Shown one piece after another: positions 21,011 to 38,789 of a DNA stretch of 64,000 nt. Position 1 is the stretch's first letter; every line of letters begins with the position of its first letter. Location: positions 226,137 to 290,136 of the forward strand of contig NZ_JQFJ01000005.1 in the NCBI RefSeq assembly GCF_000763945.1. The letters are read 5' to 3'. The translations under genes and the position numbers were made by a program. The stretch comes from Sphingopyxis sp. MWB1 (lineage in GTDB: Bacteria; Pseudomonadota; Alphaproteobacteria; Sphingomonadales; Sphingomonadaceae). Under the pieces are notes generated by a model, which did not search any database, had not been told where the DNA came from, and saw only the letters and a list, made by a program, of their open reading frames with translations.

Positions 21011-22159
21011 TCAGACCTTGATGATCCAGTTTTTCCGGCGCAGCCATTCCATCGCCGCCCAGATCAGCGCCATATATATCAGTATGGGCAGCAGGCTGGC
21101 GATTTCACCGGGCAGCCAAGCAGCCGCCCAATGATAGGGCAGTAGAACCAGGTCCCAACCGACAACCCCTGCCGTGACCATGTGCAGCACATAGGCGGCA
21201 ATGGCGTTAAGGCCAAAGGCCATAGCGATCCGTGCCAGCCAGTGGTGCTCTGCGCCTGCACGGCCGTCCACAAAATGATGAAGCGCCGCGAGCGCCAGGG
21301 TCGTAATTCCGCAGGTGACGAGGACAAAGCTCGACGACCATATGTCCTTGATCACCGGAAACCACAGGCTCCATCCGAGGCCCACGCCCAGCATCGCAGC
21401 CCCGGCCAGCGCCAGCATCCCCGCACTGCCGCCCGCCGGCCGCGCCTTAAGGGCAATGCCGATCAAAACCCCGATCAACCCATGCGCGATAGCGGGCAAG
21501 GTGCCCAGCACCCCCTCGGGATCATAGCCTTGCGGGCCCTTCACATAGATATGATTGCCAGCCCCCAAAAAGACACGATCGACCGACGCGATAAAATTCT
21601 GTCCCCGCGCCCAAATATCGGTGCCCCCTCCGTCGAGCGACGGTGCCAGCGCCAACGGCCAATATAATATAAGAATGGTGAGCGTCAGAATTAGCAGCGC
21701 ACGCGGTCGCAAAAGCAGGAACAGCAAAGCACAAGCCCCATACACCAATCCAATGCGCTGCAACACGCCAAAGAGCCGCCAGTCGCCGGACGTAAAATCC
21801 GCAAACCAGGCAAGGTTGGAGAGAAGAAAGCCAATCAGGATCAGACGTAAACTACGCGTGCCAATCTGCCACGCCACCGGAGCGGTCAAGCCATCTTCGG
21901 CGGCTGGGCGCGCAAGCGCAAAGGGAATGGAAACCCCCACCATCAATAGAAATGCGGGAAAGACCAGATCGGCTATGGTCAGTCCATCCCAGCGGGCGTG
22001 AAGCAGCGGAGGCCAGACATCCGCTTGAACCGAATAGAAGAGCGCCGCAGCCGCATTGACAAGGATCATCCCCATCACCGCGAGGCCCCGCAGCAAATCC
22101 AGCGACGCAAGCCGCGCTCTCGCCGGTTCCTGCATCATGCCCTGCGTTTTTCTGTTCAT
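21011..22159 (-). CDS. NagX-like polytopic membrane acyltransferase (DUF5009 / HGSNAT-like)
   Basis: This multi-pass membrane protein of 382 residues has about ten hydrophobic helices. It resembles the family of bacterial NagX proteins and human heparan-alpha-glucosaminide N-acetyltransferase, marked by ASLDLLRGLAVMGMILVN and DLVFPAFLLMVGVSIPFA. The start at 22159 has a GGAGG ribosome-binding site seven bases upstream. Members are often found in N-acetylglucosamine utilisation clusters, where the biochemical role is not firmly known; acetyl transfer to amino sugars across the membrane is assumed from the human homologue. Here it is the distal gene of the halogenase-GntR group, in a locus that also has a beta-hexosaminidase. 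Confidence 0.8.
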   Translation of the reverse strand: MNRKTQGMMQEPARARLASLDLLRGLAVMGMILVNAAAALFYSVQADVWPPLLHARWDGLTIADLVFPAFLLMVGVSIPFALARPAAEDGLTAPVAWQIGTRSLRLILIGFLLSNLAWFADFTSGDWRLFGVLQRIGLVYGACALLFLLLRPRALLILTLTILILYWPLALAPSLDGGGTDIWARGQNFIASVDRVFLGAGNHIYVKGPQGYDPEGVLGTLPAIAHGLIGVLIGIALKARPAGGSAGMLALAGAAMLGVGLGWSLWFPVIKDIWSSSFVLVTCGITTLALAALHHFVDGRAGAEHHWLARIAMAFGLNAIAAYVLHMVTAGVVGWDLVLLPYHWAAAWLPGEIASLLPILIYMALIWAAMEWLRRKNWIIKV

Positions 22160-22208
22160 GCTCGCCTCCCTCCCCGCAATAAACAGGAGAGAAGGAGAAC
22201 TATCTACC

Positions 22209-22243
22209 AAAAAGATACCAATAATCTCAATTGGTATCTTTTT
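22209..22243. promoter_or_regulatory. Perfect 14-bp inverted repeat between the gntR-type and nagX-like genes
   Basis: AAAAAGATACCAAT (22209-22222) and ATTGGTATCTTTTT (22230-22243) are perfect complements around a seven-base loop. The flanking T tracts on both strands would let it act as a terminator. The arms also contain the half-site ATTGGTAT seen at other promoters of this locus, so it may equally be an operator for the adjacent GntR regulator. Confidence 0.6.
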
Positions 22244-22255
22244 TGATGATTTGCA

Positions 22256-22996
22256 TCATCCCATATTCAGTTCAGCGACCAGATCATATGCGTCGCCGGG
22301 ATAAAAGGTACGGGTAAATTCCACCGGCCTGCCATCGGCTAGAAACCCCCGGCGTTCAATATAAAGCCCCGGCGCCCCAACGCTGGTCGCGAGCGCTTCG
22401 GCCTGCTCAGCATCAAGCGCCACCGCGCGCGAACGCTGGAGGGCACGAACGGGCCGGTGTCCTGCCGCATCCAGCGCAGCATAAAGCGAATGTTCGACGG
22501 CATCGATGGACGCAAGGCAGAAGGAAGCAATCGTGGAATATTCCAGCGCCATCGGCGCCCCATCGGCATAACGAATGCGATGGAAGCGGTATACAGGCGA
22601 GCCGGGTGACAATCCGAGCGATAGCGCCTCTTCGGGGTTAACCGCGCCATGCGCGCGGCTGACCCATTGCGTGGAGGGGTGACGTCCGCGAGACATCATA
22701 TCTTCGGAAAAAGAAGAGAGTTTTGAAAAACTCTTCTCCACTCGCGCACCGCGAACGAAGGTTCCCGTACCGCGACGCCGGGTCAGCAGACCTTCATCGA
22801 CCAGGCCGTCGATGGCCTTGCGTACAGTGATGCGCGACACGTCGAGCTTGTGCGCCAGGTCGCGCTCGGTAGGGATCGCATCCTCGGCCGCGACCCGCCC
22901 CTCGGCGATGGCGTCGCGCAAAAGCTGTTGCAACTGTACATAGAGGGGAGTGGAGCCTTTTTTTTGAAGCGAATGCTCAACACCATGCAGCAGCAA
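22256..22996 (-). CDS. GntR/HutC-family transcriptional regulator, NagR-like
   Basis: A DNA-binding regulator with an N-terminal winged helix (STPLYVQLQQLLRDAIAEG, LDVSRITVRKAIDGLVDEG, TRRRGTGTFV) and a C-terminal UTRA effector domain (about residues 85-245). UTRA domains bind sugar phosphates or related metabolites. The start is uncertain: no suitable ATG exists. I choose the TTG at 22996, which follows a GGAAGG ribosome-binding site; an upstream TTG at 23050 would add 18 residues. It lies 63 bases after the halogenase homologue and upstream of the NagX-like gene. It is the only regulator inside the amino-sugar locus, so it is the likely reader of the ATTGGT(A/C)T sites there. Confidence 0.88.
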   Translation of the reverse strand: MLLHGVEHSLQKKGSTPLYVQLQQLLRDAIAEGRVAAEDAIPTERDLAHKLDVSRITVRKAIDGLVDEGLLTRRRGTGTFVRGARVEKSFSKLSSFSEDMMSRGRHPSTQWVSRAHGAVNPEEALSLGLSPGSPVYRFHRIRYADGAPMALEYSTIASFCLASIDAVEHSLYAALDAAGHRPVRALQRSRAVALDAEQAEALATSVGAPGLYIERRGFLADGRPVEFTRTFYPGDAYDLVAELNMG

Positions 22997-23059
22997 TTTT
23001 TCTTCCTTCCTCCGCGGAGCAGTAGAGATATTGGGTGACCAGGGATGCAATGGCGCCCT

Positions 23060-24583
23060 TCATCGCGTCCGCCCTGCAGCGCGTAATTGTCGTTCGGCTT
23101 CCGCGCTGCTCGCACCCATTTTTACCGTGTCGGCGATGGCTGAGCGCATGCGCGCGAATGTTTCACGTAGCTCCCCTTCGCTGACACGATCCGCAAGCGG
23201 ACTGTAACGCCGCGGCCGCTCATCAAAACCGGCAAGCAAGCTCAACCAGCTTGGCTCCTGAAAACTTTCCCACTCATATCGCACCAATTCACCCTGAGCG
23301 CGCCAGGCGTCGAGCTTCATTTGCAACGTGTCGGGCAAGGTCAAACCTCGCATATAATCCCAAAATGGTTCGCCCATCCGCCGGTTGAGGCAATAATGAA
23401 TCAGCAGGAAATCGCGTATCCGTTCAAATTCCAGTCGCGATTGACGATCATAAACGGCGGCAAGCGCAGGATCGCAGCGGCGATCGGGAAACAAACGCAC
23501 CAACCGTTCAATTCCCGATTGAATGAGCGTGATGCTTGTGGATTCCAGCGGCTCCAGAAACCCTGCCGCGAGACCAATGGCGACAACATTGCCCTGCCAG
23601 AAACGCTCGCGGTGGCCCGGCGTAAAGCGCAATCGCCGAGCCTCGCCGATCGGCACTCCCTTCAATTGGGCCCGTAGCCGCTGCTCGGCCGCATCATCCT
23701 CTATATATTCGGAACAATAGACATAACCATTCCCATCCCGGTGACGCAGTGGGATATGCCATTGCCACCCGGCCTCCCTTGCCGTGGCCGTCGTCAGCGG
23801 CGGCGCCACTCCCCCATTCTCGCTACCGATCGCAATCGCGCGATCACAGGGCAGCCAGCGGCGCCAGTCGACATAGCCGACGCCCATAGCATCGCCAATC
23901 AACAGCCCCCGAAACCCTGAACAATCGATCCATAAATCGCCCACGACACGCTGCCCATTGGCTAGTCGGATCGCCTCCACATGACCATTACCCTTGGACC
24001 GCTCGACGCCCTCGATCCGGCCGTCGATATGCGTCACCCCCTTGGCGAGAGACAGATCGCGCAGCATTGCCGCAAATTTGGACGCGTCAAAATGCAACGC
24101 GAAGTCAAACAAGCCAAGGTCATTGGCCGGTCGCGGATTGGGAACGAGGAAACGCCCCTGCTGGGCCAGCTGGGTGCAGAGACAATAATCGGATAGCGGC
24201 ACGTCATCGCCTGCAGACTGCAGCTTCAGCCAATATTGATGAAAGGGCACACCGCGCGCGGGCACCCCATAAAGGCCAAAGGGGTGAAAGAAATAATGCC
24301 CCTTCTCGGCCCAGTCCTGAAAAGCGATGCCCAGCTTGACCGTGCCTTCGGTCGCGGCGAGCACGTCGGCATCCCTGAGGCCCACCGCCGCCAGAAAATC
24401 GCGGATCGCGGGCACGGTTGCCTCGCCAACCCCGACCGTTCCGATTTCGGAACTGTCGACGACCGTTATTTCAAGGGAAAGGTGGCGCAGATGCTGCGCC
24501 ATATAGGCGGCGGCCATCCATCCGGCCGTTCCGCCCCCGACGATCACCACCCGCCGGATTTGCTGATCCTGGTCGTTCTTCAT
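23060..24583 (-). CDS. Flavin-dependent tryptophan-halogenase family protein
   Basis: A 507-residue FAD protein of the tryptophan-halogenase family. The start at 24583 (MKNDQDQQIRR) is preceded by AGGGGTGG. It has the dinucleotide-binding GGGTAGW (16-22), GVGEATVP (51-58), a Lys at 83 (EGTVKLGIAF) aligned with the catalytic Lys of PrnA, the WxWxIP signature (WQWHIP, 273-278), and LEPLEST (343-349) with the catalytic-type Glu. All the residues expected of an active flavin halogenase are thus present. In sphingomonads and relatives such genes frequently sit beside TonB-dependent receptors in sugar loci, where no halogenated product is known. Its reaction here is therefore uncertain. Confidence 0.87.
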   Translation of the reverse strand: MKNDQDQQIRRVVIVGGGTAGWMAAAYMAQHLRHLSLEITVVDSSEIGTVGVGEATVPAIRDFLAAVGLRDADVLAATEGTVKLGIAFQDWAEKGHYFFHPFGLYGVPARGVPFHQYWLKLQSAGDDVPLSDYCLCTQLAQQGRFLVPNPRPANDLGLFDFALHFDASKFAAMLRDLSLAKGVTHIDGRIEGVERSKGNGHVEAIRLANGQRVVGDLWIDCSGFRGLLIGDAMGVGYVDWRRWLPCDRAIAIGSENGGVAPPLTTATAREAGWQWHIPLRHRDGNGYVYCSEYIEDDAAEQRLRAQLKGVPIGEARRLRFTPGHRERFWQGNVVAIGLAAGFLEPLESTSITLIQSGIERLVRLFPDRRCDPALAAVYDRQSRLEFERIRDFLLIHYCLNRRMGEPFWDYMRGLTLPDTLQMKLDAWRAQGELVRYEWESFQEPSWLSLLAGFDERPRRYSPLADRVSEGELRETFARMRSAIADTVKMGASSAEAERQLRAAGRTR

Positions 24584-24676
24584 CACTTGACCACCCCTTA
24601 CCCCTGCCTTCTCATGCAAGAAAGCTCGCCGCTCGCACAAGGCGAGCGGCGAGTAGGAGAGGTTCGATGAAAATGA

Positions 24677-27600
24677 TCAGAACCGAGCGCGAACACCCGC
24701 TACAAACTGACGCTCGTAAATCTGATCCCAACCGACCTGATCTTTCCAAGTCAAATAATAGCGTTCGGACTCGCCAGTGATGTTGGAGGCCTGACCATAA
24801 AGGGTAATATTGTCGGTCACAGCAAACGAAACAGAGGCATCAAAATAATTGGTCGGACGCTGATAGACCGACAGACCGCGGATTCCGGCCCAATTCTGGC
24901 TATTAAGACGCTTCGAACGATAATTATAAGCGATACGCGCCGAAAATGGCCCATTTTCATACCAGAGGGCAGCGTTTACCTGATGCTTGGAGTTGTCTTG
25001 GAATGGCTGCTTCTTGCCAGCAAGATCCACAGCTCCCGTATCGCCCAGCGAAAGCGTATAGTTCGCATCGACGCCAAAGCCGCCGAGGAAACCATCCACG
25101 CCATAATCGGTCAGCGCCTGACGAGCCGAAGCCTCAAAACCCTTGAGCGAGCCTCCTGATCCTTGGACAATTGTAGTTACGGGTAGCGCCGGATTTCGAA
25201 CGACCCCGTCATTGTCAGGGATGTCATTTCGCAGGATGGTCGAGTTAAGAATGAAGTTTTCCACCTCAAGATAGAACGCACCCACCGCTAGCATGCTCGA
25301 AGGCCCAGTATAGAGCTCGAGACTGGCCTCCACGTTGCTCGACCGCCAAGGCTTTAGGTCCGGGTTACCGCCCTGATTGGCCGATTCGGCGCGAAAGATC
25401 GGTGGGCTGACCGAGTTGTCGATCGCATAGCCGATCCGGAGTCCGCCACCCCACTGGATGAAATCCAGCAGCGTCATCGTCTTCGCATAGGAAGCTCGAA
25501 GCTTCAGCTTGTCATTCAAATCGAAGGCGACATTGAGCGCTGGCAAGAAATCCGTGAACTCCCGGTTAAAGTATACATCGCCCGCATCCACGCCGGAAAC
25601 GCCATAGGGCTGTCCGTCGCCCAGAATGTTCTGAAGAACACGGAATTTGGTATTCACGACACGCACGCCGCCATTGGCACGGAACGGGAGACCAAAAACC
25701 TCACCCTCCCCATTTGCCTGCACATAGCCCGAAATCTGGCGCAGGTTCATTTCAAAAGAATCCGCCGGATTTATGTTGTTGATGTTGCCCGGATAGAATT
25801 TATTCTGGATCGCTTCGGCATCATCCAGTTCGCGTGGATCGATAGCCCAAATGTCCGGTAAGCCCGCAGCGTTGAGCTTATATGGCTTCATTTTCCCGCC
25901 AAAAATCGCATCGGTGCCGTCGCGTACCAAACCGGCGGTATACGGATCCCCGTTTGCGTCACGGACCGAACAGGCCGCGCTACCCATATTGACGTCAAAT
26001 GATTTCCATTTGACCAAACATCCGCCAGCGGGATTCGAGGGATGATCGGTATTCCCCGCATAAAGGGGCGATACACGCTCGAACGTAAACTGTTCGACCG
26101 CACGTTCACTATAGCGGGCGCCTGCGCTGATCCCGATACCGCTATCCGATTCCCACTCAACGTCACCGCGAAGGGCCCAAATATCACCATCGCGGTGATC
26201 ATTCCCTTCGGAAGAAACAGCCTTCAACGCATAGGTGCTCAGATCCTTCACCTGATCAAGAAAAGCGGTAGGGAATTTAAAAGCAAGTTTGCCGCTGGAG
26301 TAATCAACTGTCGCTTTTTGGCTGTAAATGCGATAGCCGTCCGGATTGAAGGCGCGATCACCTCCCAAGCTGTCAGGGTAGTTTCCGACTCCATTATACG
26401 CCCATTGGCTGCCGTCAGTCAGGTTGAACTGCAGATAGGACTGGTCCATTTTCCGGCTGGCTTTACCATAAATACCGCGCAGCGTGGCTCTCAACCCTTC
26501 GCCATTGTCATAATCGAGCTGAAGATTGTAATTTTGCGATTCCGATTTAGTCCGGAACGTTTCCGAATAGCTGTCAGCATTCGGCATATCATATTCATAA
26601 GTTTGGACCGTATGAACGTCATGTTGACGCCCGCCGATGACTGGGCTTTTCGCGCCAGTATCGCGGAACTTGGTCGGCAAAAACGGCGTCTGCATCCAGC
26701 CAACATTCTGGAACAAAAAACCTGCCGTGCGGTCATATTGCGTCTGACGAGTATAAAATGCATCGGCGGTCAGCTTAAGCGAATCGCTTAATTCGAATTG
26801 CAGCGAGACATTGCCGCCCAAACGATCACGCGAGGTAATGCGATCCCACACTGCGTTCGATTGCGGCGCAATAAATGCATCATTCGCATCGCCATCGCCA
26901 TTTACGTCAAAACCGATAATATTGCCGCCGCCATCGCGAATCGCCGTGCCTCGGCTAACGCCGCCATTGCCCACCGCAAAGTCGCCTTGCGAGCCCTCAG
27001 CCTGCTCCTTGGGGCTCAAAGCTTCCCGACGCAACGAGACACCATAGCTTTGAATACCGCGATAGCTGTTCGAAAGATCTACCGTGCTATAGGCGACAGA
27101 CGCCAAAATGCCGAAGCGGCCAGAATTATAGGCTACAAGCCCGTTGAAAGCGGGATTCCACTCCTTGGTCTTGTCGCCATATTGCGCCTCAGCCGCTGCC
27201 GAAACGGTAAGGCCCGACGGCAGATCAAACGGACGCCGGGTCAGCAGATCCACTGTTCCCGAAAGGCCACTTTGCTGCAGCGAAGCGGTCGGCGATTTAT
27301 AGACTGTCGCCCCGGCGAACAACTGCGAAGGAATGTCTGTAAAATTGGGCTGAACGGTTGTGACCGAGTTCGCCCCCAAAAACTCTTCCCCATTCAGCAG
27401 GGTTGTCACCTGAGGAAGGCCGCGAATATTGATCCGCCCACCTTCACCCGCTTCACGGCGAATCTGGATGCCGGGGATACGCTGAAGCGAATCCGAAATG
27501 GTGCGGTCGGGCAGCTTGCCGATATCTTCGGCGCTGATGGCATCGACGACGCTGTCGGCCTGACGCTTTACATCAATGGCGCGCGTTTGTGATGCCCGGA

Positions 27601-27751
27601 TTCCCGTTACAATGATTTCGTCCATGGGTGCAGTAGTGGCAGCCGTCACCTCCGCCCCTTCTTGCGCGAAAGCCGCGCCCGGAATGGAAAGCGCTATGAC
27701 CGACGCGGCGGTCAAAAGCGTCATGCGTGCACGGTCCCTGTGAATTGACAT
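24677..27751 (-). CDS. TonB-dependent receptor of the Xanthomonas/Caulobacter sugar-uptake type
   Basis: A 1024-residue outer-membrane receptor. The start at 27751 (MSIHRDRARMTLLTAAS) follows GAGAAGG and gives a clear signal peptide cleaved near AAFAQ. The plug domain has EIIVTGIRASQTRAIDVKR, ISAEDIGKLPDRTISDSLQR and INIRGLPQVTTLLNG, the hallmark of the TonB-Xanth-Caul subfamily often used for carbohydrates. The barrel ends in ...GVRARF. Base composition looks lower in GC than the genes on either side. Its gene leads a unit with the halogenase homologue and has a palindrome about 120 bases upstream. Uptake of chito-oligosaccharides or a related amino sugar is inferred from the neighbouring GH20 enzyme. 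Confidence 0.91.
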   Translation of the reverse strand: MSIHRDRARMTLLTAASVIALSIPGAAFAQEGAEVTAATTAPMDEIIVTGIRASQTRAIDVKRQADSVVDAISAEDIGKLPDRTISDSLQRIPGIQIRREAGEGGRINIRGLPQVTTLLNGEEFLGANSVTTVQPNFTDIPSQLFAGATVYKSPTASLQQSGLSGTVDLLTRRPFDLPSGLTVSAAAEAQYGDKTKEWNPAFNGLVAYNSGRFGILASVAYSTVDLSNSYRGIQSYGVSLRREALSPKEQAEGSQGDFAVGNGGVSRGTAIRDGGGNIIGFDVNGDGDANDAFIAPQSNAVWDRITSRDRLGGNVSLQFELSDSLKLTADAFYTRQTQYDRTAGFLFQNVGWMQTPFLPTKFRDTGAKSPVIGGRQHDVHTVQTYEYDMPNADSYSETFRTKSESQNYNLQLDYDNGEGLRATLRGIYGKASRKMDQSYLQFNLTDGSQWAYNGVGNYPDSLGGDRAFNPDGYRIYSQKATVDYSSGKLAFKFPTAFLDQVKDLSTYALKAVSSEGNDHRDGDIWALRGDVEWESDSGIGISAGARYSERAVEQFTFERVSPLYAGNTDHPSNPAGGCLVKWKSFDVNMGSAACSVRDANGDPYTAGLVRDGTDAIFGGKMKPYKLNAAGLPDIWAIDPRELDDAEAIQNKFYPGNINNINPADSFEMNLRQISGYVQANGEGEVFGLPFRANGGVRVVNTKFRVLQNILGDGQPYGVSGVDAGDVYFNREFTDFLPALNVAFDLNDKLKLRASYAKTMTLLDFIQWGGGLRIGYAIDNSVSPPIFRAESANQGGNPDLKPWRSSNVEASLELYTGPSSMLAVGAFYLEVENFILNSTILRNDIPDNDGVVRNPALPVTTIVQGSGGSLKGFEASARQALTDYGVDGFLGGFGVDANYTLSLGDTGAVDLAGKKQPFQDNSKHQVNAALWYENGPFSARIAYNYRSKRLNSQNWAGIRGLSVYQRPTNYFDASVSFAVTDNITLYGQASNITGESERYYLTWKDQVGWDQIYERQFVAGVRARF

Positions 27752-27871
27752 ATCCTTCTCCCTGTATGCCTGCGCTTCAAAGCGCTTGATTGCCCCCGTC
27801 GGCGGCGCGCGCGCCATCATGCCGACTTCGGATTCGATTTAATACATAAATATGACCAATAATCAAATTAT

Positions 27872-27892
27872 AATAATACCTGTGGTATTATT
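27872..27892. promoter_or_regulatory. Palindrome upstream of the sugar-type TonB-dependent receptor
   Basis: AATAATACC (27872-27880) and GGTATTATT (27884-27892) form a perfect 9-bp inverted repeat around TGT, in an AT-rich promoter region about 120 bases upstream of the receptor start. A further half-site, GACCAAT, lies at 27854-27860. The shared GGTAT core with the repeat at 22209-22243 suggests binding by the same GntR regulator. Confidence 0.5.
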
Positions 27893-27976
27893 GCATCGGC
27901 GCTCGATCGCCATGCGACCGGCGTTGGCATTCATGTTTCTTTCCTCCTATTTTTGAATTGCTTGGTGCGCTCTGAA

Positions 27977-28903
27977 TCATCTGGAACCGCCATATTCACG
28001 GCCCGGAACAGCGGTCCGAAAGTGCTCGATCGCACCGCGGTCCTGTAAAGTTACATAAACACTGCGCCCATCCGGTCCGCCAAAGGCAATATTGGTCGGG
28101 TCCTTGCCCCATGTCGGGATTCGGCGAATTTCGCGGCCATCCGGCGCCAGTACGGCGACATGGCCCGCACCATAGCGGGCGACATATAAATTCCCCGCGC
28201 GGTCGCAGCGCATACCGTCCAGTCCATGATCGGCAAAGCTGGCAAAGAGGCGCTTGTTGCTCGCGCGCCCTTCGGCATCGAGATCATAGAGCCAGATACG
28301 CCGCTGAACGCTTTCGCCGACATAGAGGCGGCGCCCGTCAGGGCTGAGCTCTATGCCGTTGGTTGTGCCCATGTTATTTTCGATCAGTTTAACCTGGCCA
28401 TCGCGATCAATGCGCCACAATTGGCCGCTTTCGCTCGCCCAATCGGGGTCGCTTGCGTAGAATATGCCGCTGGGCGCGCGGGCGATATCATTGGGCTGAT
28501 GGGCATGTGGCAGGGAGGCAAAGACAGTTGCCTGCCCCTCGCTGTCGATCCGCAGCAATTGGTGCCCCTTGTAATCGGCGACGATCATCGCCCCGTCGCC
28601 GTCAAAGCGAATGCCATTGCCGATGCTGCCGGGCGGAAGATCGGTAAAAAGGCTGGCGCGCCCCGTTCCGTCCCCGGCGGGAACAACGCGGCCGATCGTT
28701 CCCTCACGCCCAAAATTGACGACATAGAGCGCGCCGTCGGGCCCGGTGGCCGGCCCCTCGATCCCCGCCGTGAACACGCCGTCGCCGACATAATCGCGCG
28801 CCTGGAACAAGGGCGCGCCCGCGGGCAGCGAAGCGCAAGCGGGGAACAACATGATCGCAGTTGCCCCCGCTGCGAAAGAAAGGAGTTTCTGTTTCACAGC
28901 CAT
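27977..28903 (-). CDS. SMP-30/gluconolactonase-family protein, exported
   Basis: A 308-residue six-bladed beta-propeller of the SMP-30/Gnl/LRE family, whose enzymes hydrolyse sugar lactones such as glucono-1,5-lactone. The start at 28903 overlaps the permease gene by ten bases and gives a hydrophobic signal (LLSFAAGATAIMLFPACAS). That signal may be a lipoprotein signal (Cys at FPAC, a weak lipobox) or an ordinary cleaved one. Propeller motifs include GIEGPATGPDGALYVVNFG, PNDIARAPSG and LDGMRCDRAGNLYVARYG, with the Glu, Asn and Asp that usually bind the metal. It is the last gene of the GH20-permease-lactonase unit. Periplasmic opening of an aldonolactone before import is the simplest role. 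Confidence 0.85.
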   Translation of the reverse strand: MAVKQKLLSFAAGATAIMLFPACASLPAGAPLFQARDYVGDGVFTAGIEGPATGPDGALYVVNFGREGTIGRVVPAGDGTGRASLFTDLPPGSIGNGIRFDGDGAMIVADYKGHQLLRIDSEGQATVFASLPHAHQPNDIARAPSGIFYASDPDWASESGQLWRIDRDGQVKLIENNMGTTNGIELSPDGRRLYVGESVQRRIWLYDLDAEGRASNKRLFASFADHGLDGMRCDRAGNLYVARYGAGHVAVLAPDGREIRRIPTWGKDPTNIAFGGPDGRSVYVTLQDRGAIEHFRTAVPGREYGGSR

Positions 28904-30255
28904 AGCGCCAGCAGGAGGGTGAACAGCAGCGCCACGATGGAGATGATCGTCTCGCACACCGTCCAGGTCTTGAAAGTTTGCGGCACCGTCATGCCGAAAT
29001 AGGTCTTCACCAGCCAAAAGCCTCCGTCATTGACATGCGACAGGATGAGCGAGCCCGCCCCGGTCGCGAGCACCAGAAGTTCGGGCGAAATATCGCTTCC
29101 CGCTGCGACCGGGGCGACGATCCCTGCAGCGGTGGCCATGGCGACCGTCGCCGATCCGGTCGCGATCCGCATCATCGCCGCCACCAGCCAGGCGAGAAGC
29201 AGCAGCGGCACGTCAACGCGCTGTGCCATGCCAACCACCGCATCAGAAATTCCGGCTTCCATCAGGATGCGCCCGAAACCCGCGCCCGCGCCGACGATCA
29301 AGGTAATCAGCGCGGTGGGTGCGAGACATTGTTCCAGAAAGCGCCCGATGGTTTCCCGATCATAGCCTCGCGCGCTGCCAAAGGTGAGAAAGGCCAGCAA
29401 CAACCCCGCGAGCAGCGCCGTGACCGGATGGCCCATCATGCGAATAAAATCATTTGTCGCGCTGTCTGCGGGTGCGAAAAGATCGGCCCAGCTGCCAAGG
29501 AGCATCAGCAAGACCGGTAGCAGGATGGTGAACAATGTGATGCCGAAACCGGGAAGCTCCCGCGTATCAGTCGCCGCGCCCGGGCCATTGCCGCCATCGG
29601 TCAGCGCCTCGGCCATCGCATTTGGACCTTCGATCGTCACATAGCGATCAATCAGGCTCGCAAAAAGCGGCCCGGCAATTGCCGCGGTCGGGATGCCGAC
29701 GATCAGCGCATAGAGAACGGTACGTCCAATATCCGCCTGATATGCCCCCACCGCGAGCAAGGCAGCGGGATGCGGCGGGACCAGGCCATGCACCACCGAA
29801 AGGCCCGCGACCATGGGCAGGCCGACCTTGATGATCGACGTGCCCGTCCGCATGGCGACGGTGAAGACGAGCGGGATCAGCAGGACAAAGCCCACTTCGA
29901 AAAAGACGGGCAAGCCCACGACCAGCGCCGCGACCATCATCGCCCAGTGCACGCGCTGCGGCCCGAACCAGCCGATCAGCGTCTGCGCGATCCGCTCCGC
30001 GCCGCCCGATTCGGCCATCAGCTTGCCGAGCATCGTGCCCAGCCCGACGACCAGCGCGATATGGCCCAGCGACCCGCCGACCCCCTCTTCATAAATGGCG
30101 AGGAGCCGGTCGAGCGGCAAACCGGCCGCCGCGCCGAGCAGCAGCGAGGTGATCAGCAGCGCCAGAAAGGGATTGAGCTTCCACCGCGCAATCAGAAATA
30201 CCAGCCCGATGACGGCAGCCAGCCCCATCAGAACAAGAATAGCCTCTCCGCTCAT
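28894..30255 (-). CDS. GntP-family gluconate/sugar-acid:H+ symporter
   Basis: A 453-residue polytopic permease of the gluconate:proton symporter family with about 12-14 helices. Motifs include GLVFLIARWKLNPFLALLITSLLLGAAAGLP (split across helices 1 and 2), GLGTMLGKLMAESGGAERIAQTL, VVHGLVPPHPAALLAVGAY and SHVNDGGFWLVKTYFGM, all family-diagnostic. It is preceded by a GGGGGGAGG ribosome-binding site and lies 28 bases after the beta-hexosaminidase. The substrate is a sugar acid. Given the hexosaminidase and the lack of glucose-acid genes, an amino-sugar acid such as N-acetylglucosaminate is plausible but inferred. Confidence 0.9.
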   Translation of the reverse strand: MSGEAILVLMGLAAVIGLVFLIARWKLNPFLALLITSLLLGAAAGLPLDRLLAIYEEGVGGSLGHIALVVGLGTMLGKLMAESGGAERIAQTLIGWFGPQRVHWAMMVAALVVGLPVFFEVGFVLLIPLVFTVAMRTGTSIIKVGLPMVAGLSVVHGLVPPHPAALLAVGAYQADIGRTVLYALIVGIPTAAIAGPLFASLIDRYVTIEGPNAMAEALTDGGNGPGAATDTRELPGFGITLFTILLPVLLMLLGSWADLFAPADSATNDFIRMMGHPVTALLAGLLLAFLTFGSARGYDRETIGRFLEQCLAPTALITLIVGAGAGFGRILMEAGISDAVVGMAQRVDVPLLLLAWLVAAMMRIATGSATVAMATAAGIVAPVAAGSDISPELLVLATGAGSLILSHVNDGGFWLVKTYFGMTVPQTFKTWTVCETIISIVALLFTLLLALWL

Positions 30256-30283
30256 CGCCTCGCCTCCCCCCTTGACCCCAAGC

Positions 30284-32566
30284 TCACTCGGCCTTCAACT
30301 GGACCGATTTGATCGCCCACAGAGGGTCGGGACCATCGCCGGTGAAGGTGAAGCAAAGGTCGGCCTTGCCCTTCCGCGGGGCGACCGGAACGGTCAGGCG
30401 CGTCACCGCCGGGCTGGTCACCTGCGCGAGCGGCACCCAGCCGATGCGTTCGCCCTCGCAGCCGCCAGCACGGATTTCCAGTTCGCCTTCGGGCGTAGCA
30501 GGCGCGCTACGCGGCGTGACATTGCGCCCGTTGCTCAGCTGGAAATTGAAGGGAACCTGCCCCACTTCGACGTCGATCGCCGCGACCTTGTCCATCGGCG
30601 CGGCCTCGAACAGCCAGCAGGGGCTGAGGATGTTGACGAGGAAGTCGGCGCGCGGCCCCTCGGCGGGTGCATCGTCGATCAGCGCCAGCGGCAGGCCCTG
30701 GCTGCATTGCTTGAGCTCGCGATCATCGCGGCGCAGCACATTGACCCGGTCATAGCTTCTATCGAGCGCGCCCGGCAGAGCGGTGCCGCCGCGAAAGGCC
30801 GCCGCGCGCAACCGCGCCGGCAGCTTGAGCGTCAGCGGCTGCGAATAAAGCTGCGCCTTCGGCCCCGGTGCGCTGCCATCGGTCGTATAGCGTATCTCCG
30901 CAGGCACCTGCACCGACAGGTCGAGCGTTACCTGCCTCTCCGCTTGCGACGCGATACGCGCAACCGGGGTGAAAGCACTTTTGGCAGGGTCAAAGCCCAT
31001 GGCTTTCATGCGATCCACTTGCGGCACCAGCCGGTCGACAAAGCCAGCGAAATCGTCACCCGCGCCGCGCCACGCCACCTCGGCGAGCGCCGAGAGGCGC
31101 GGGAAAATCATATAGGATGCCCGCGCATCGTCGCGGGCATGTTCGCTGAACAGGGTCGCTTCCAGCCCGATGATATGCCGCTGCTGCTCCGGGGTCAGCG
31201 AATCGGGAAGCGGATCGAAATTATAGATATCTTCCAAGGTGATCAGCCGCCCGCGCCCCGGCCCTTCGCCCGCCTCGACGCCCTGCCGATGATCAAGGTA
31301 AAGGTCGGGCGAGGGCGCCAAAATCGCATCATGCCCGGCATGGGCGGCGATGATCGCGCCCTCCACCCCGCGCCACGACATGACCGTCGCATTGGGGGCG
31401 AGCTTGCCTTCGGCAATTTCGTCCCACCCCACAAGCTTGCGCCCGCGCTTGGCCAGCATCGCCTCGACGCGCCGCATGAACCAGGGTTGGACTTCCTCCA
31501 TTTTGGCCAGTCCCAATTCGCGCATTCGCTCCTGCACGCGCGGCGAATTGGCCCATTGCTCGGTAATCACCTCGTCACCGCCCACATGGATATAGGGTGA
31601 CGGAAAGAGTGCGACCGTTTCGGCGATTACATCGTCGATAAAGGAAAAGCTGCTTGCCTCGATATTGAAGACCCAGGGATAGACCCCCCAATCAGCATGA
31701 ACATCATCGGGAATGGGAACCCCGGTGCCGAGCTCGGGATAGGCGCGAAGCGCCGCCAGCGCGTGACCCGGCAATTCCAGTTCGGGAACGACGGTGATGT
31801 TGCGTGCAGCCGCATAGGCGACAATGTCGCGAATCTCTTCCTTGCTGTAGTGGCCGCCATAGGGCGGCAGAGGCGGCGCACCGGGCGCGGTGGCGGGAAG
31901 GCGCCATCCCCCCACTTCGGTCAGCTTTGGATATTTGTCGATCGGCAGGCGCCAGCCCTGATCATCGACCAGATGCCAGTGGAAGATATTGAGCTTGTGC
32001 GCGGCCATCGCGTCGATCAGCCGCTTGATGAAATCCACCGACTGCATATGCCGCGCGCTGTCGAGCATGAAGCCGCGCCAAGCAAAGCGCGGCGCATCCT
32101 CGATCGACACGGCGGGAACGACCGCCGCGCTCGCCGACGCCAATTGCCACAGCGTTACAGCGCCATGAAACAGGCCGGCATCGTCGCTCGCCCTGATCGT
32201 GGCACCGCGCGGCGTTGTGACCAGGCGATAGCCTTCGGCAGGCAGCCCAGCGACCCGTTCGAACCGCACCGTCACCGCCGGGTCTTTGCCCGCCGCCCGC
32301 TGGCCCAGCTTGTCCCGCAGCCAATTCACCGCTTTTTGCAGGCCCACATCGTCGGACGCCGCCACGATGGCGACACCGTCAGAAAGGCGGAACCCGCCCT
32401 CTGACGGTGTCGCGGAGACAGGCTTAGGCAGGAGAGGCAGAGCGCTGGCCCGCTGCTCCGCCCCCACCGGAATAGCCGACGCCATCGCCAGCATGCCGGC
32501 GAGAAGGCCCGCGGCGATTCGTCCCCGCCTTGCAGGCCTGAACCTGCAATTGCCCGTCTTTTTCAT
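30284..32566 (-). CDS. GH20 beta-N-acetylhexosaminidase, exported
   Basis: A 760-residue glycoside hydrolase that removes terminal beta-linked GlcNAc or GalNAc. It has a signal peptide (cleavage near PVGAEQ) and a GH20b domain (about 45-165). The GH20 catalytic barrel (about 165-500) includes FAWRGFMLDSARHM, NIFHWHLVDDQGWRLPI, and the catalytic Asp-Glu pair in IHVGGDEVITEQW. A C-terminal beta-sandwich region with FN3/chitobiase-like sequences follows. It acts in the periplasm or outside the cell. It is the first gene of the unit with the permease and lactonase, and is divergent from the enolase-superfamily operon, with a 205-base regulatory gap between them. Confidence 0.94.
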   Translation of the reverse strand: MKKTGNCRFRPARRGRIAAGLLAGMLAMASAIPVGAEQRASALPLLPKPVSATPSEGGFRLSDGVAIVAASDDVGLQKAVNWLRDKLGQRAAGKDPAVTVRFERVAGLPAEGYRLVTTPRGATIRASDDAGLFHGAVTLWQLASASAAVVPAVSIEDAPRFAWRGFMLDSARHMQSVDFIKRLIDAMAAHKLNIFHWHLVDDQGWRLPIDKYPKLTEVGGWRLPATAPGAPPLPPYGGHYSKEEIRDIVAYAAARNITVVPELELPGHALAALRAYPELGTGVPIPDDVHADWGVYPWVFNIEASSFSFIDDVIAETVALFPSPYIHVGGDEVITEQWANSPRVQERMRELGLAKMEEVQPWFMRRVEAMLAKRGRKLVGWDEIAEGKLAPNATVMSWRGVEGAIIAAHAGHDAILAPSPDLYLDHRQGVEAGEGPGRGRLITLEDIYNFDPLPDSLTPEQQRHIIGLEATLFSEHARDDARASYMIFPRLSALAEVAWRGAGDDFAGFVDRLVPQVDRMKAMGFDPAKSAFTPVARIASQAERQVTLDLSVQVPAEIRYTTDGSAPGPKAQLYSQPLTLKLPARLRAAAFRGGTALPGALDRSYDRVNVLRRDDRELKQCSQGLPLALIDDAPAEGPRADFLVNILSPCWLFEAAPMDKVAAIDVEVGQVPFNFQLSNGRNVTPRSAPATPEGELEIRAGGCEGERIGWVPLAQVTSPAVTRLTVPVAPRKGKADLCFTFTGDGPDPLWAIKSVQLKAE

Positions 32567-32585
32567 TACTCCCCATCTCCCGATA

Positions 32586-32718
32586 AGACCAATTTTCCAA
32601 TGGTTCTAATTTCGATATTTTCACCAAGCTCGCATAAAAGGTGGTTTTGCGTCAACATGTTTATAAAATGCGCAATTATTGGTCTCTTTGCACTGGCGCA
32701 TTGGTCTAAATTGGTTAT
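32586..32718. promoter_or_regulatory. Divergent promoter with repeated ATTGGTCT-type half-sites
   Basis: The gap between the GH20 gene (-) and the enolase-superfamily operon (+) is AT-rich. It contains AGACCAAT (32586-32593) facing AATGGTTCT (32599-32607), which make an imperfect palindrome. It also contains ATTGGTCT at 32679-32686 and 32701-32708 and ATTGGTTA at 32711-32718, spaced 22 and 10 bases, about two turns and one turn of the helix. These resemble half-sites of NagR/DasR-type GntR regulators. Confidence 0.5.
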
Positions 32719-32771
32719 GATACACCAAGGCTCCGGCTCAGCCGGGCGAGAAAGGGAGAGGCAGAGAGGCC

Positions 32772-33944
32772 ATGGCGACCATATCGCGCGGAAGCGCGGG
32801 CATCGGCGACGCACCGATCATCACCAAATTTGAATTTCACGAAGTTGTGGTTCCGGCGAAGCCCGGCATCGTCAATTCCGAATCGCTGGCCAAGCCGCTG
32901 CACATGCTTCCTGTCGGCGGCAAGGCGGCGTGGAGCGTCCAGTTCGACGCCTTGCCCAAGCTGGTCGTGAAAATGACACTGGCCAATGGCGTGGTCGCGC
33001 TCGGCGAATTTTACCGCGACCATGAATGGGCGCGGATCGAGGCCATTTCGGGCGAATTGCTCGGCACCGATATTTCCGCCCTGTCGCTGCAGCAATTACC
33101 GCTGCCGCTGGTGCGCGAATTTGACGGGTTCGAACTCGCGCTGTGGGACGGGTGGGCCAAGACGCTGGGCGTGCCGCTTTACAAGCTGCTCGGCGGGCGG
33201 GTGCGCGACGCGGTCTTATGCCATGCCTGGTCGAGCCATCGCACGCTCGACGAAATCGGCCCGTGGGTGCGCGCCTATCAGGACCAGGGCTATCGGGCGA
33301 TCAAGCTGAAGGCCGATCTGGAAGATGATGTCGTCGGCCTGTGCGAACAGATTGCCGCCCATGCGCCGGGAATGAAGGTGGTGTTCGACCCCAATCAGCG
33401 CTGGGAAAATATGGCGTCGGCCAAGATCCGCGTGCGCGGGCTGGAACAGGTGGGCAATGTGCAGTTGCTCGAAGATCCCATCCCCAAATGGATGATCCCC
33501 GACTATGCCGATCTCTGCCGCTTTTCGTCCATTCCCATCACCCAGCATATTGCCTTGCCCTATATTTATCAGGGGCAGCGGGTGCATGATATCATTGCAC
33601 TGATCCAGCAGCGCGCCGCCGATGGTTTCAACTTCAACGCGGGGCTTGCCAAATTCGCGCAGCTCAATGCCATTGCCGAGGCGGCCAATCTTTACTGCTT
33701 CCACGGCTCCGAAATCGACCTTGGCATTTTGGAGGCCATGTATGTGCACCAGTCGATCGCGGCGAAAAGCTGTGTCTGGTCGAGCGACATTTTCGGCCGC
33801 CTGATCCGCGAGCATGACCTGCTCAAGACCCCGCTGCGCTTCGAGCCGCCCTATGCCTTTGTTCCTGAAGGGCCGGGGTTGGGGGTCGAGCTCGATCCCG
33901 CAGCGCTTGAACGCTATTCCATCCGCCACGAGGTTTTCGCATGA
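32772..33944 (+). CDS. Enolase-superfamily (mandelate racemase-like) enzyme with altered active site
   Basis: A 390-residue two-domain protein of the mandelate racemase/muconate lactonizing type: capping domain about 15-135 and TIM-barrel after it (LYKLLGGRVRDAVLCHAW). The KxK base (K178, K180), Asp206 (FDPNQRW) and Glu234 (LLEDPIP) are in place, as are His311 and Glu314 (FHGSE). At the third metal-ligand position, usually Glu, the sequence reads ITQHIA (258-259). The Asp usually paired with the His base is replaced by Asn (FNFNAG, about 287-289). The chemistry is thus not that of a standard acid-sugar dehydratase. It is first of three ATGA-coupled genes with ridA and a creatininase homologue. 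A dehydratase or racemase acting on an amino-sugar acid is a guess. Confidence 0.85.
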   Translation: MATISRGSAGIGDAPIITKFEFHEVVVPAKPGIVNSESLAKPLHMLPVGGKAAWSVQFDALPKLVVKMTLANGVVALGEFYRDHEWARIEAISGELLGTDISALSLQQLPLPLVREFDGFELALWDGWAKTLGVPLYKLLGGRVRDAVLCHAWSSHRTLDEIGPWVRAYQDQGYRAIKLKADLEDDVVGLCEQIAAHAPGMKVVFDPNQRWENMASAKIRVRGLEQVGNVQLLEDPIPKWMIPDYADLCRFSSIPITQHIALPYIYQGQRVHDIIALIQQRAADGFNFNAGLAKFAQLNAIAEAANLYCFHGSEIDLGILEAMYVHQSIAAKSCVWSSDIFGRLIREHDLLKTPLRFEPPYAFVPEGPGLGVELDPAALERYSIRHEVFA

Positions 33945-34336
33945 CCGCATCCCGCCCCATCCAGCCCGTCGCCTCCGAACAACATGTCACGGCCGGACCC
34001 TATTCGCCCGTGCTGCGGATCAGCCGCGATGCCGATATCATCGTCATTTCGGGCCAGGCCCCGCTCGATCTGCAGGGGCAGGTGATCGGCGATACGATTG
34101 AGGAGCAGGCGCGCGTCACGCTGGAAAATTGTCGCAAGCAGCTTGCCGCCGCGGGCGCCAGTTTTTCGGACGTGTTCAAGGTCAATGTCTATATGACCGA
34201 CCTGGCCGACTGGCCGCGCTTCAACAACGTCTATCGCGAGATCATGCCCCAGCCCTTCCCCACGCGCACCGCCATCGGCTGCGCGCTGCTCGACGGTTTT
34301 CAGGTCGAAATTGAAATGTGGGCGGTGCTCGCATGA
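33941..34336 (+). CDS. RidA-family enamine/imine deaminase
   Basis: A 131-residue protein of the RidA/YjgF/UK114 family, which hydrolyses reactive enamines and imines made by dehydratases. Visible motifs are GPYSPVLRIS, IIVISGQAPLDLQG, QARVTLENCRKQLAAAGASFSDVFKVNVYMTD (in parts) and FPTRTAIGCALLDGFQVEIEMWAV. Canonical RidA has an Arg near the C-terminal part (here PTRTAIG) that contacts the carboxylate. It overlaps the genes on both sides by four bases (ATGA), so its product is made in step with the enolase-superfamily enzyme. That suggests it clears an imine formed by its neighbour. Confidence 0.9.
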   Translation: MTASRPIQPVASEQHVTAGPYSPVLRISRDADIIVISGQAPLDLQGQVIGDTIEEQARVTLENCRKQLAAAGASFSDVFKVNVYMTDLADWPRFNNVYREIMPQPFPTRTAIGCALLDGFQVEIEMWAVLA

Positions 34337-35106
34337 AGTGGGAGGCGCTGACCAGCCCGATGCTGGGCGCGCTCGACCGCGACACGCCGGTCATCCTCAA
34401 CATCGGGGCGATTGAACAGCATGGGCCGCATCTGCCGCTCGCCACCGATGCGCTGATCGGACGCCATTTCACCGACCGGATCGATGCCGAAATGGGCGAG
34501 GAGGTGCTGATCCTGCCGCAGATTGCGGTTTGTTGCTCGCGCCATCATATGGCTTTTGCCGGCACGCTGACCGTCAGGCACGAAACCTTCCTTGCCTATC
34601 TGACCGATCTGCTCGCTGCGGTGGTCGCCCATGGGTTTCGCAAGATCATCCTGTTCAACAGCCATGGCGGCAATCTGGCGATCGGACAGGTGGCGCTTGA
34701 ATCCTTTGGCAATGATTTTCCCGAGATCGACATCTTCCTCCTCACCTGGTGGCGCATCGCCGCCGAGGAGCTGGCGAAGATTCAGGAAAGCAGCTTTGGC
34801 GGCGTCGGCCATGCCTGCGAATTTGAAACCTCGCTGGTCCAGATGATCGCGCCCGAGCTTGTACGGATCGACAAGGCGGTCGACCAGCTTCCCGTTCATG
34901 ATTTCCATTGGGCCGCCGCCGACCTGCTCCACGGCGGGCGCGCCGCGCATCATCGCAATATGCATCAGCTTAGCGCCGGAACCGGCGTGTCGGGCTGCCC
35001 CTCGCTCGCTTCGCCGGAGAAAGGACGCGCCATTTCGGACGCGGTCACGCGCGTTGCGGTTTCGATGCTGCGCGACATTCGGGCTGGAGGATCTGTCGCC
35101 CCCTAA
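34333..35106 (+). CDS. Creatininase-family metal-dependent amidohydrolase
   Basis: A 257-residue member of the creatininase family (creatinine amidohydrolase and formamide/amide hydrolases). The start ATG at 34333 overlaps the ridA stop. Metal-binding motifs are intact: GAIEQHGPHLPLATDAL (Glu, His and Asp ligands), LFNSHGGNLAIGQ and GHACEFETSLVQMI with the Glu ligand. Creatinine is an unlikely substrate here. In an operon with an enolase-superfamily enzyme and RidA, next to a GH20 enzyme and a sugar-acid permease, removal of an N-acyl group from an amino-sugar acid is an attractive but untested role. It ends ten bases before the convergent XRE regulator. Confidence 0.87.
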   Translation: MKWEALTSPMLGALDRDTPVILNIGAIEQHGPHLPLATDALIGRHFTDRIDAEMGEEVLILPQIAVCCSRHHMAFAGTLTVRHETFLAYLTDLLAAVVAHGFRKIILFNSHGGNLAIGQVALESFGNDFPEIDIFLLTWWRIAAEELAKIQESSFGGVGHACEFETSLVQMIAPELVRIDKAVDQLPVHDFHWAAADLLHGGRAAHHRNMHQLSAGTGVSGCPSLASPEKGRAISDAVTRVAVSMLRDIRAGGSVAP

Positions 35107-38159: not shown

Positions 38160-38789
38160 ATGAACAATGGGGAGGGAAAAGTCGCGCTCGCAAGCCGGGC
38201 GCCGCAACGCATCGACGGCCGCCGCGAGCGCAGCCGGTCGAGCCATCGGCGCATCGTCAAGGCGATGATGGAATTGATGACCGCAGGCGACCTGATGCCC
38301 AGCGCGGCGCGCGTTGCCGAAGAGGCTGGCCTGGGGCTTCGCACCGTGTTTCGCCATTTCGACGATATGGACGCGCTCTATGCGGAGATCAGCGACACCG
38401 TTGCCGACCGCGTCCTGCCGATTGCCGCCGCCCCTTTTGCCGGGGCCGACTGGCGCGCCAATATGCGCGACCTGACCGAACGGCGCGCGCGCATTTTCGA
38501 AACCATGCTGCCCTTTCGCCTCGCGGCCAATATCAAGCGCTATCAGTCGCCCTTTCTGATGGGCCAATATGAACAGGTGATCGCGGCCGAACGCGACCGG
38601 GTGCTGCATTTGCTGCCCCCCGCCATTTTGGCGGAGCGCATGACTGCCGAGGCGCTGTGCGCCACCCTGTCCTTTCAGAATTGGCGGGCGCTGCGCCATG
38701 ATCAGGGGCTGGAGGCGGATATGGCAAGCCAAGTGGTCGCGCATATGGTCGAAACGCTGATGGGCACGCTGCCGCCGCATATCGAATGA
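38160..38789 (+). CDS. TetR-family transcriptional regulator
   Basis: A 209-residue regulator with a basic N-terminal extension (residues 1-28) and a TetR helix-turn-helix (RIVKAMMELM, AARVAEEAGLGLRTVFRHFDD). An all-helical C-terminal ligand domain follows. The stop overlaps the start of the formylglycine-generating enzyme gene by four bases, so the two are translated together. That makes control of the sulfatase-maturation gene likely. No clear operator is seen in the 46-base gap upstream. Confidence 0.87.
   Translation: MNNGEGKVALASRAPQRIDGRRERSRSSHRRIVKAMMELMTAGDLMPSAARVAEEAGLGLRTVFRHFDDMDALYAEISDTVADRVLPIAAAPFAGADWRANMRDLTERRARIFETMLPFRLAANIKRYQSPFLMGQYEQVIAAERDRVLHLLPPAILAERMTAEALCATLSFQNWRALRHDQGLEADMASQVVAHMVETLMGTLPPHIE

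What the first reader, a model, noticed from the sequence alone, without database searches (positions are those of the whole stretch)
21011..35106. Possible oxidative, non-phosphorylating amino-sugar pathway
The locus has a GH20 hexosaminidase, lactonase, sugar-acid permease, enolase-superfamily enzyme, RidA and creatininase-type amidohydrolase, with a NagX-like protein and a GntR regulator, but no nagA, nagB or GlcNAc kinase. A consistent route is: GlcNAc oxidised to its lactone, then N-acetylglucosaminate (SMP-30), import (GntP), N-deacetylation (creatininase homologue), dehydration (enolase-superfamily), imine hydrolysis to 2-keto-3-deoxygluconate plus ammonia (RidA). From memory, an oxidative chitin route through this acid is described in marine Pseudoalteromonas; the enzyme families here may differ. 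The oxidase and KDG-handling enzymes are not in the window.
Basis: inference. Interest (0 to 1): 0.75.

Follow-up and report, generated by a model that had tools for sequence, protein, structure and literature searches.

The report
Enolase-RidA-creatininase amino-sugar-acid gene module
Three enzyme genes that travel together in a few distantly related bacteria look like an unrecognised way of turning an oxidised amino sugar into a common sugar-acid intermediate, but no enzyme activity has been shown.

Summary
His 'no nagA, nagB or GlcNAc kinase' holds for the window only: another contig of the genome carries NagA, a NagB-II-like protein, GlcNAc PTS genes, a GH20 and a GntR 68% identical to the window's. 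So this is an added route, not a replacement. What stands up is a three-gene core: enolase-superfamily protein (ENO), Rid protein, creatininase homologue (CRE). I found 10 loci with this ENO; one is cut off by its contig end; in the other 9, CRE and a Rid-family gene lie close by on the same strand. They span Alphaproteobacteria and the actinobacterium Embleya. The transporter differs by lineage: GntP, TRAP, Opp-type ABC or CUT1-type ABC. In Embleya a KDG-kinase-like gene overlaps the end of CRE; in Pseudokordiimonas the core lies in a hexuronate cluster with a KdgK-like kinase. This supports 2-keto-3-deoxygluconate (KDG) as product. All 10 ENO lack the third acidic metal ligand and have His there. 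Most likely the module degrades N-acetylglucosaminate or a close relative, with enzymes unlike those of the known ong pathway. Substrate, product and step order are inferred.

The parts
21011..22210 (-). NagX-like membrane protein (HGSNAT_cat/DUF5009)
   Evidence: NCBIfam NagX 133 bits, below its cut-off of 480; no homologue in the 9 other locus stretches searched by tblastn, nor in L021
22256..23050 (-). GntR/UTRA regulator, 68% identical over 244 aa to the GntR in the genome's nag cluster
23060..24640 (-). tryptophan-halogenase-family flavoprotein
   Evidence: PF04820 E 4.4e-171
24677..27820 (-). TonB-dependent receptor
   Evidence: TIGR01782 561 bits, above cut-off
27977..28903 (-). SMP-30/gluconolactonase-like, probable lipoprotein (lipobox read by eye); start placed by me at an inner ATG, the ORF extends to 29017
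   Evidence: 69% homologue in L013
28894..30255 (-). GntP-family sugar-acid permease
   Evidence: TIGR00791 467 bits, above cut-off; about 76% identical homologues in L013 and L014
30284..32566 (-). GH20 hexosaminidase with signal-like N-terminus (by eye) and GGDE motif
   Evidence: 60-62% homologues beside the core in L013, L014
32567..32771 (.). divergent gap with three ATTGGTMT half-sites (32586-32593 -, 32678-32685 +, 32700-32707 +)
   Evidence: motif chosen after inspection
22211..22255 (.). gap before NagX with two inverted ATTGGTAT half-sites (22215-22222 -, 22230-22237 +)
   Evidence: motif chosen after inspection
32772..33944 (+). ENO: enolase-superfamily (MR_MLE_C) protein; K178-x-K180, D206, N208, E234, H259, H311
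33941..34336 (+). RidA-family imine/enamine deaminase homologue
34333..35106 (+). CRE: creatininase-family metal amidohydrolase homologue; start placed by me at the inner ATG shared with homologues (ORF opens at 34318)

Best explanation
The right half of the locus (GH20-GntP-SMP-30 diverging from ENO-RidA-CRE) is a catabolic module for a 2-acylamino aldonic acid, most likely N-acetyl-D-glucosaminate (GlcNAc1A). In the periplasm GH20 frees GlcNAc1A (or its lactone) from C1-oxidised chito-oligosaccharides and the SMP-30 protein opens the lactone. GntP imports the acid. In the cytoplasm ENO abstracts the proton at C2 and eliminates the 3-hydroxyl, CRE hydrolyses the amide, and RidA hydrolyses the resulting enamine/imine to 2-keto-3-deoxygluconate (KDG) and ammonia. 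KDG is then phosphorylated and cleaved by KDPG aldolase. My preferred order is dehydration before deacetylation, because some enolase-superfamily relatives act on N-acylated amino acids (N-acylamino acid racemases). The left half (NagX-like, GntR, halogenase-like protein, TonB receptor) is a GlcNAc-type uptake and regulation set related to the genome's separate nag/PTS cluster. Shown: gene content, conservation of the core, accompanying transporters and kinases, conserved residues. Inferred: substrate, product, order, cell compartments, regulation. The 0.45 is for this acid class going to KDG by these three enzymes in either order, so it overlaps with the first rival.
For: ENO, CRE and a Rid gene occur together in 9 of 9 assessable loci of 10 (L018 ends inside ENO). 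Two Rid subfamilies fill the place: RidA between ENO and CRE in 5 loci (window, L013, L014, L017, L021); in 4 loci (L015, L016, L019, L020) a YjgF_endoribonc protein downstream on the same strand, 25% to the window RidA without a significant E-value (Pfam run on L015 and L019, the L016 and L020 copies are 79% identical to L015's). Importers: GntP in 3, TRAP in 1, Opp-type ABC in 4, CUT1-type ABC in 1 (in each Rhizobiales locus one component was scanned, the rest read by eye). GH20 beside the core in 3 of 9, a weak GH20 in L017. KDG as product: KDG-kinase-like PfkB gene overlapping CRE in Embleya; KdgK-like kinase and ManD, UxaC, a UxuB-like protein, KduI and KduD near the core in Pseudokordiimonas. 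KDPG aldolase in 9 of 9 genomes or records. The OngC PLP family is absent from 3 of 9, this genome included. RpiR regulators, as in ong, in 5 of 9 loci. In ong a RidA is essential though its role is unknown (PMC9537276, passages).
Against: No activity data. The Rhizobiales and Embleya stretches have no homologue of the window GH20, so the amino-sugar link rests on the sphingomonad loci and, weakly, Pseudokordiimonas. This genome has no LPMO10 or GH18 match, so oxidised chitin would have to come from other organisms; no oxidase was identified. Of nine genomes or records, LPMO10 is in Embleya only and GH18 in Embleya and G676 only. CRE's nearest named models are creatininase, MftE and IolN, which I recall as not deacetylating sugars; all score below cut-off. 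ENO lacks the third acidic ligand and the strand-6 Lys, so dehydratase chemistry is not assured. PF14031 proteins do exist elsewhere in 6 of 9, and this genome has an Amidohydro_3 protein (G000:C1:115826) resembling PRK09061 below cut-off, which I recall as D-glutamate deacylases, so another deacetylase is possible. E. coli KdgK finds only weak matches here (best E 2.2e-7); of the three proteins two score best on KDG-kinase-related models and one does not, all below cut-off. SMP-30 is in only 2 of the 3 GntP-type loci.
Confidence: 0.45

Rival explanations
1. One reading: CRE deacetylates GlcNAc1A to glucosaminate first, then ENO dehydrates glucosaminate and RidA hydrolyses the imine to KDG.
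For: Same order as ong (OngB deacetylase, then OngC; PMC9537276 passages). CRE keeps E33, H35, D44 and H116 in 13 of 13 aligned sequences, fitting a metal amidohydrolase.
Against: A free alpha-amine is, by general chemistry, a poor substrate for metal-assisted alpha-proton abstraction; ENO's PDB sequence relatives include N-acylamino acid racemases. Gene order does not decide.
Confidence: 0.25
2. Same chemistry, different substrate: another acylamino sugar acid (N-acetylgalactosaminate, an N-acyl hexosaminuronate) or an N-acyl amino-sugar conjugate taken up by the Opp-type transporter in Rhizobiales.
For: Transporter class differs by lineage. The Pseudokordiimonas core sits in a hexuronate cluster. 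KDG and KDGal kinases are not separable here. BKACE genes lie near 2 Rhizobiales loci; the upstream flanks of the other two were too short to tell.
Against: GH20 and GntP beside the core in 3 of 9 loci, and the GntR related to that of the nag cluster, point to a GlcNAc-derived acid in the window.
Confidence: 0.3
3. Ordinary GlcNAc/chito-oligosaccharide uptake locus: GH20, TonB receptor, NagX and GntR feed GlcNAc to the nag/PTS set on contig C4; the divergent ENO-RidA-CRE operon only happens to lie beside it.
For: nag/PTS cluster with a 68% identical GntR; ATTGGTMT half-sites upstream of both sets (post hoc).
Against: GH20, GntP and the core stay together in Sphingomonas deserti and Sphingopyxis LC81 without homologues of NagX, GntR or the halogenase in the stretch; GntP and SMP-30 are not needed for GlcNAc via PTS.
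Confidence: 0.15
4. Rid is generic detoxification, and ENO plus CRE act on a non-amino sugar acid or lactam.
For: Rid proteins are widespread (general knowledge); CRE-family members hydrolyse diverse bonds (IolN, MftE models hit below cut-off).
Against: A Rid gene in 9 of 9 assessable loci, of two different subfamilies.
Confidence: 0.12

Closest known systems
ong cluster, oxidative chitin utilisation in Pseudoalteromonas (PMC9537276, passages seen)
   Same: GH20, importer, TonB receptors, RidA, removal of acetate and ammonia from a C1-oxidised amino sugar to give KDG (here inferred), RpiR regulator (in 5 of 9 loci here, not in the window)
   Different: ong uses a D-aminoacylase-type deacetylase (OngB), a PLP fold-type III deaminase (OngC), an SSS importer and a clustered KdgK; here a creatininase homologue, an enolase-superfamily protein and GntP, and no PF14031 match in this genome
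D-glucosaminate utilisation through the Dga proteins (PMC9529869, passages seen)
   Same: amino aldonic acid broken down through an enamine/imine to a KDG-type acid, then aldolase
   Different: Dga imports and phosphorylates by a PTS and acts on the 6-phosphate with a PLP ammonia-lyase; the core here has no PTS or PLP gene
Canonical NagA/NagB GlcNAc pathway
   Same: present in this genome on contig C4 with a related GntR
   Different: phosphorylated intermediates, no lactone or acid stage, different enzymes
Enolase-superfamily acid-sugar dehydratases (ManD, GalD)
   Same: MR_MLE_C domain, KxK motif, first two metal ligands, a conserved His near the end (equivalence to the superfamily's catalytic His recalled)
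   Different: all NCBIfam models hit score below cut-off; third acidic ligand replaced by His259, and a four-residue deletion near strand 6

Membership tests
ong oxidative chitin pathway | OngC-type PLP deaminase (PF14031) | tested here: not met
ong oxidative chitin pathway | OngB-type D-aminoacylase deacetylase in the cluster | tested here: not met
   none among the ten locus proteins; Amidohydro_3 proteins exist elsewhere in the genome
ong oxidative chitin pathway | RidA gene and GH20 in the cluster | tested here: met
ong oxidative chitin pathway | growth on or conversion of GlcNAc1A | not testable with these tools
   needs enzyme assay or culture
Creatininase (TIGR04448) | model score above cut-off | tested here: not met
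   98.7 bits against 235
Creatininase superfamily (PF02633) | Pfam score above cut-off and E/H/D/H metal residues | tested here: met
   207.7 bits against 31.3; E33, H35, D44, H116 invariant in 13 of 13; the 26 Foldseek matches at E <= 0.001 are creatininase-family chains
Enolase superfamily, MR/MLE-like | KxK on strand 2 and first two metal ligands (D, E) | tested here: met
   K178, K180, D206, E234 invariant
Enolase superfamily, MR/MLE-like | third acidic metal ligand (D or E after strand 5) | tested here: not met
   H259 in 10 of 10 core ENO, I or V at 260 (aligned to D and E of solved relatives); sequence alignment only, the AF2 model was too poor
Rid family | Ribonuc_L-PSP domain | tested here: met
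   PF01042 95.7 bits
NagX (NF046061) | equivalog cut-off | tested here: not met
   133 bits against 480

The most novel reading that the evidence does not exclude
A PLP-free amino-sugar-acid pathway: an enolase-superfamily enzyme with a histidine in place of the third metal ligand dehydrates N-acetylglucosaminate while the acetyl group is still on; the creatininase homologue is an enamidase; and a Rid protein is an obligate pathway enzyme that finishes the reaction to KDG, recruited at least twice from different Rid subfamilies.
Probability: 0.3. Interest if true: 0.75.

Novelty: new variant of a known kind. Interest (0 to 1): 0.6.

Why it matters
It would give a second, non-homologous enzyme set for oxidised amino sugars, found in Alphaproteobacteria and at least one actinobacterium. 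It could explain why a RidA with no assigned role is essential in the ong pathway. It would also add an enolase-superfamily active site with an unusual metal-ligand set, testable with three small soluble proteins.

Tried and rejected
Rejected: 'no GlcNAc pathway in the organism'. Rejected as part of the module: NagX, GntR, halogenase-like protein (no homologue in L013 or L014 stretches). Tried: AF2 model of ENO with a 9-row alignment, mean pLDDT 51, not used; AF2 model of CRE, mean pLDDT 72. Two amidohydrolases near the nag cluster (L005) look like histidine-utilisation enzymes by eye and were dropped. Operator search: ATTGGTMT occurs 8 times in the window against 1.3 expected, 5 of them in two locus gaps; 3 in L040 against 0.51, 2 of them in gaps; joint test over five gaps 7 seen against 0.07. 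The motif was picked after reading those gaps, so this is post hoc; the gap before the TonB receptor had none, and inverted repeats in the L013 and L014 gaps gave nothing clear.

Left out of core counts: haloarchaeal loci with a creatininase homologue (34-36% identical to CRE). Two of the three records also carry a mandelate-racemase protein (26% to ENO) with Glu near the third ligand position. Roseomonas CRE has no ENO or Rid gene annotated nearby and lies among transposases. Of 172 plasmid records matching CRE I read the surroundings of five besides Embleya: Roseomonas, one Rhizobium (no ENO or Rid gene annotated) and three haloarchaea; the PLSDB gene tables are incomplete.

Literature: searches gave no paper joining enolase-superfamily, Rid and creatininase genes; only asked for such combinations, one search listed 30 of 236 papers, and the held library lacks most subscription journals.

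Distribution: 2 of 296 genomes of the order at E<=1e-60, 1 of 385 of the class at 1e-40, 1 of 398 of the phylum at 1e-60 with a profile; each includes the window's own genome. The contig scan used two short peptide patterns, so its 8 loci are a lower bound; L017 is the same locus as L011 from G067 and was counted once.


Full report
What is in the window. Ten ORFs of 21011-35106 were recovered and placed in families. On the minus strand, in transcription order: GH20, GntP permease, SMP-30 lactonase-like, TonB-dependent receptor, tryptophan-halogenase-family flavoprotein, GntR/UTRA regulator, NagX-like membrane protein. Diverging on the plus strand: an enolase-superfamily protein (ENO), RidA and a creatininase homologue (CRE), with overlapping ends. 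GH20 and SMP-30 have export-type N-termini (by eye) and GH20 keeps the GGDE motif. I saw no signal in ENO, RidA or CRE; no signal predictor was run.

The nag claim. The window is G000:C5:226137-290136 of a 3.12 Mb, 5-contig genome. The nagA model finds one gene above its cut-off in that genome (292.4 bits, cut-off 225.65), at C4:60249-61370. Around it lie a GH20, a GntR, a NagB-II-like protein (332.8 bits, below the cut-off of 430), a PTS EIIA-HPr-EI fusion, and a GlcNAc-specific EIIBC (621.9 bits, cut-off 553.2). The C4 GntR is 68% identical to the window's over 244 aa. So GlcNAc can be handled by the usual phosphorylated route, and the window locus is an additional route. I did not search the genome with a nagB or kinase family.

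The conserved core. A pair alignment of ENO from the window and from genome G067 was used for one scan of the GTDB genome contigs: 8 loci, from Sphingomonas deserti, Sphingopyxis sp. LC81, Aquamicrobium, Chelatococcus, Pseudokordiimonas caeni (the same locus as G067), a Methylobacteriaceae MAG, Aurantimonas and a Mesorhizobium MAG. A plasmid search added Embleya. With the window that is 10 ENO loci. One (L018) ends inside ENO; in the other 9, CRE is the next gene or the next but one, and a Rid-family gene is present on the same strand. In 5 loci RidA lies between ENO and CRE. In the 4 Rhizobiales loci (order names recalled) a different Rid subfamily follows the transporter genes. In Pseudokordiimonas and Embleya the RidA frame has an extra N-terminal stretch of about 160 residues without a Pfam hit. 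The module is rare: 2 of 296 genomes in the order, 1 of 385 in the class, 1 of 398 in the phylum, the window's own genome included each time; the 15 other genomes of its genus listed have none.

What surrounds the core elsewhere. Importers: GntP in window, L013, L014; TRAP in L017 (DctP and DctM); Opp-type ABC in L015, L016, L019, L020 (SBP_bac_5 in L019 and L020, permeases in L015 and L016; the rest by eye); CUT1-type SBP_bac_1 ABC in Embleya. GH20 at 60-62% identity lies beside the core in L013 and L014, a weak GH20 in L017. RpiR regulators were confirmed by Pfam in L013, L014, L015, L016 and L020, 5 of 9 loci. The ong cluster also encodes an RpiR regulator (PMC9537276).

Why KDG. In Embleya a PfkB kinase starts within the last codons of CRE; its best NCBIfam model is KDG/KDGal kinase, 189 bits, below the 400 cut-off. 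In Pseudokordiimonas the core lies within about 12 kb of KduI, KduD (359.2 bits, cut-off 338.85), a mannitol-dehydrogenase-family UxuB-like protein, UxaC, ManD (741.9 bits, cut-off 550) and a KdgK-like kinase (202.5 bits, cut-off 400). KDPG aldolase is in 9 of 9 genomes or records. In this genome three PfkB proteins are weak matches to E. coli KdgK. Two score best on KDG-kinase-related models, one of them beside KduD (408.4 bits, cut-off 338.85); the third does not.

Active sites. ENO keeps K178, K180, D206, N208, E234 and H311 but has H259 and I or V at 260 in 10 of 10, where solved relatives have D or E; the strand-6 Lys is missing with a four-residue deletion there. CRE keeps E33, H35, D44 and H116; the creatininase Glu of the NGHYEN motif corresponds to G118 (that it is E122, a metal ligand, is recalled). 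Structure prediction of ENO failed.

How it most likely works, and how sure. I put 0.45 on a GlcNAc1A-type acid being taken to KDG by ENO, CRE and Rid in either order, with dehydration first as my preferred order (a chemical argument from N-acylamino acid racemases, not a result). The main rivals are another acylamino sugar acid as substrate, and a chance neighbour of a GlcNAc uptake locus. LPMO10 and GH18 were not found in this genome (other chitinase families not searched), so oxidised material would be scavenged.

Relation to known systems. It works like the ong pathway but lacks that system's defining enzymes, so I do not file it there. The ong paper says the role of its essential RidA is still unknown (passage). 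The Dga pathway (PMC9529869, passages) is phosphorylated and PLP-based. Seven searches of the held library gave no paper joining these three families (limits in Tried and rejected).

Noticed in passing
window 38786-39742 and 39659-41527: Formylglycine-generating-enzyme homologue overlapping end to end with a sulfatase on the other strand, a few kb from the GlcNAc-type locus; possibly for a sulfated amino sugar.
   Followed up: partly
L017:11138-12004 and L021:11137-12024: RidA frames with an extra N-terminal stretch of about 160 residues and no Pfam hit there, in an alphaproteobacterium and an actinobacterium.
   Followed up: partly
L016:5339-6211 and L019:6320-7255: BKACE (beta-keto acid cleavage enzyme) genes near two Rhizobiales core loci.
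   Followed up: no
L023/L025, L026, L027: Haloarchaeal plasmid loci with creatininase homologues: two with a mandelate-racemase protein, an M81 metallopeptidase and an ABC transporter (one of these with a RidA, the other with a PIG-L deacetylase), a third with a Rid gene.
   Followed up: partly
L021:8509-9327 and 9324-9998: An SDR (by eye) and an RraA-like protein in the Embleya operon, upstream of ENO.
   Followed up: no
window 23060-24640: Tryptophan-halogenase-family flavoprotein between a GntR and a TonB receptor; role in sugar uptake unexplained.
   Followed up: no
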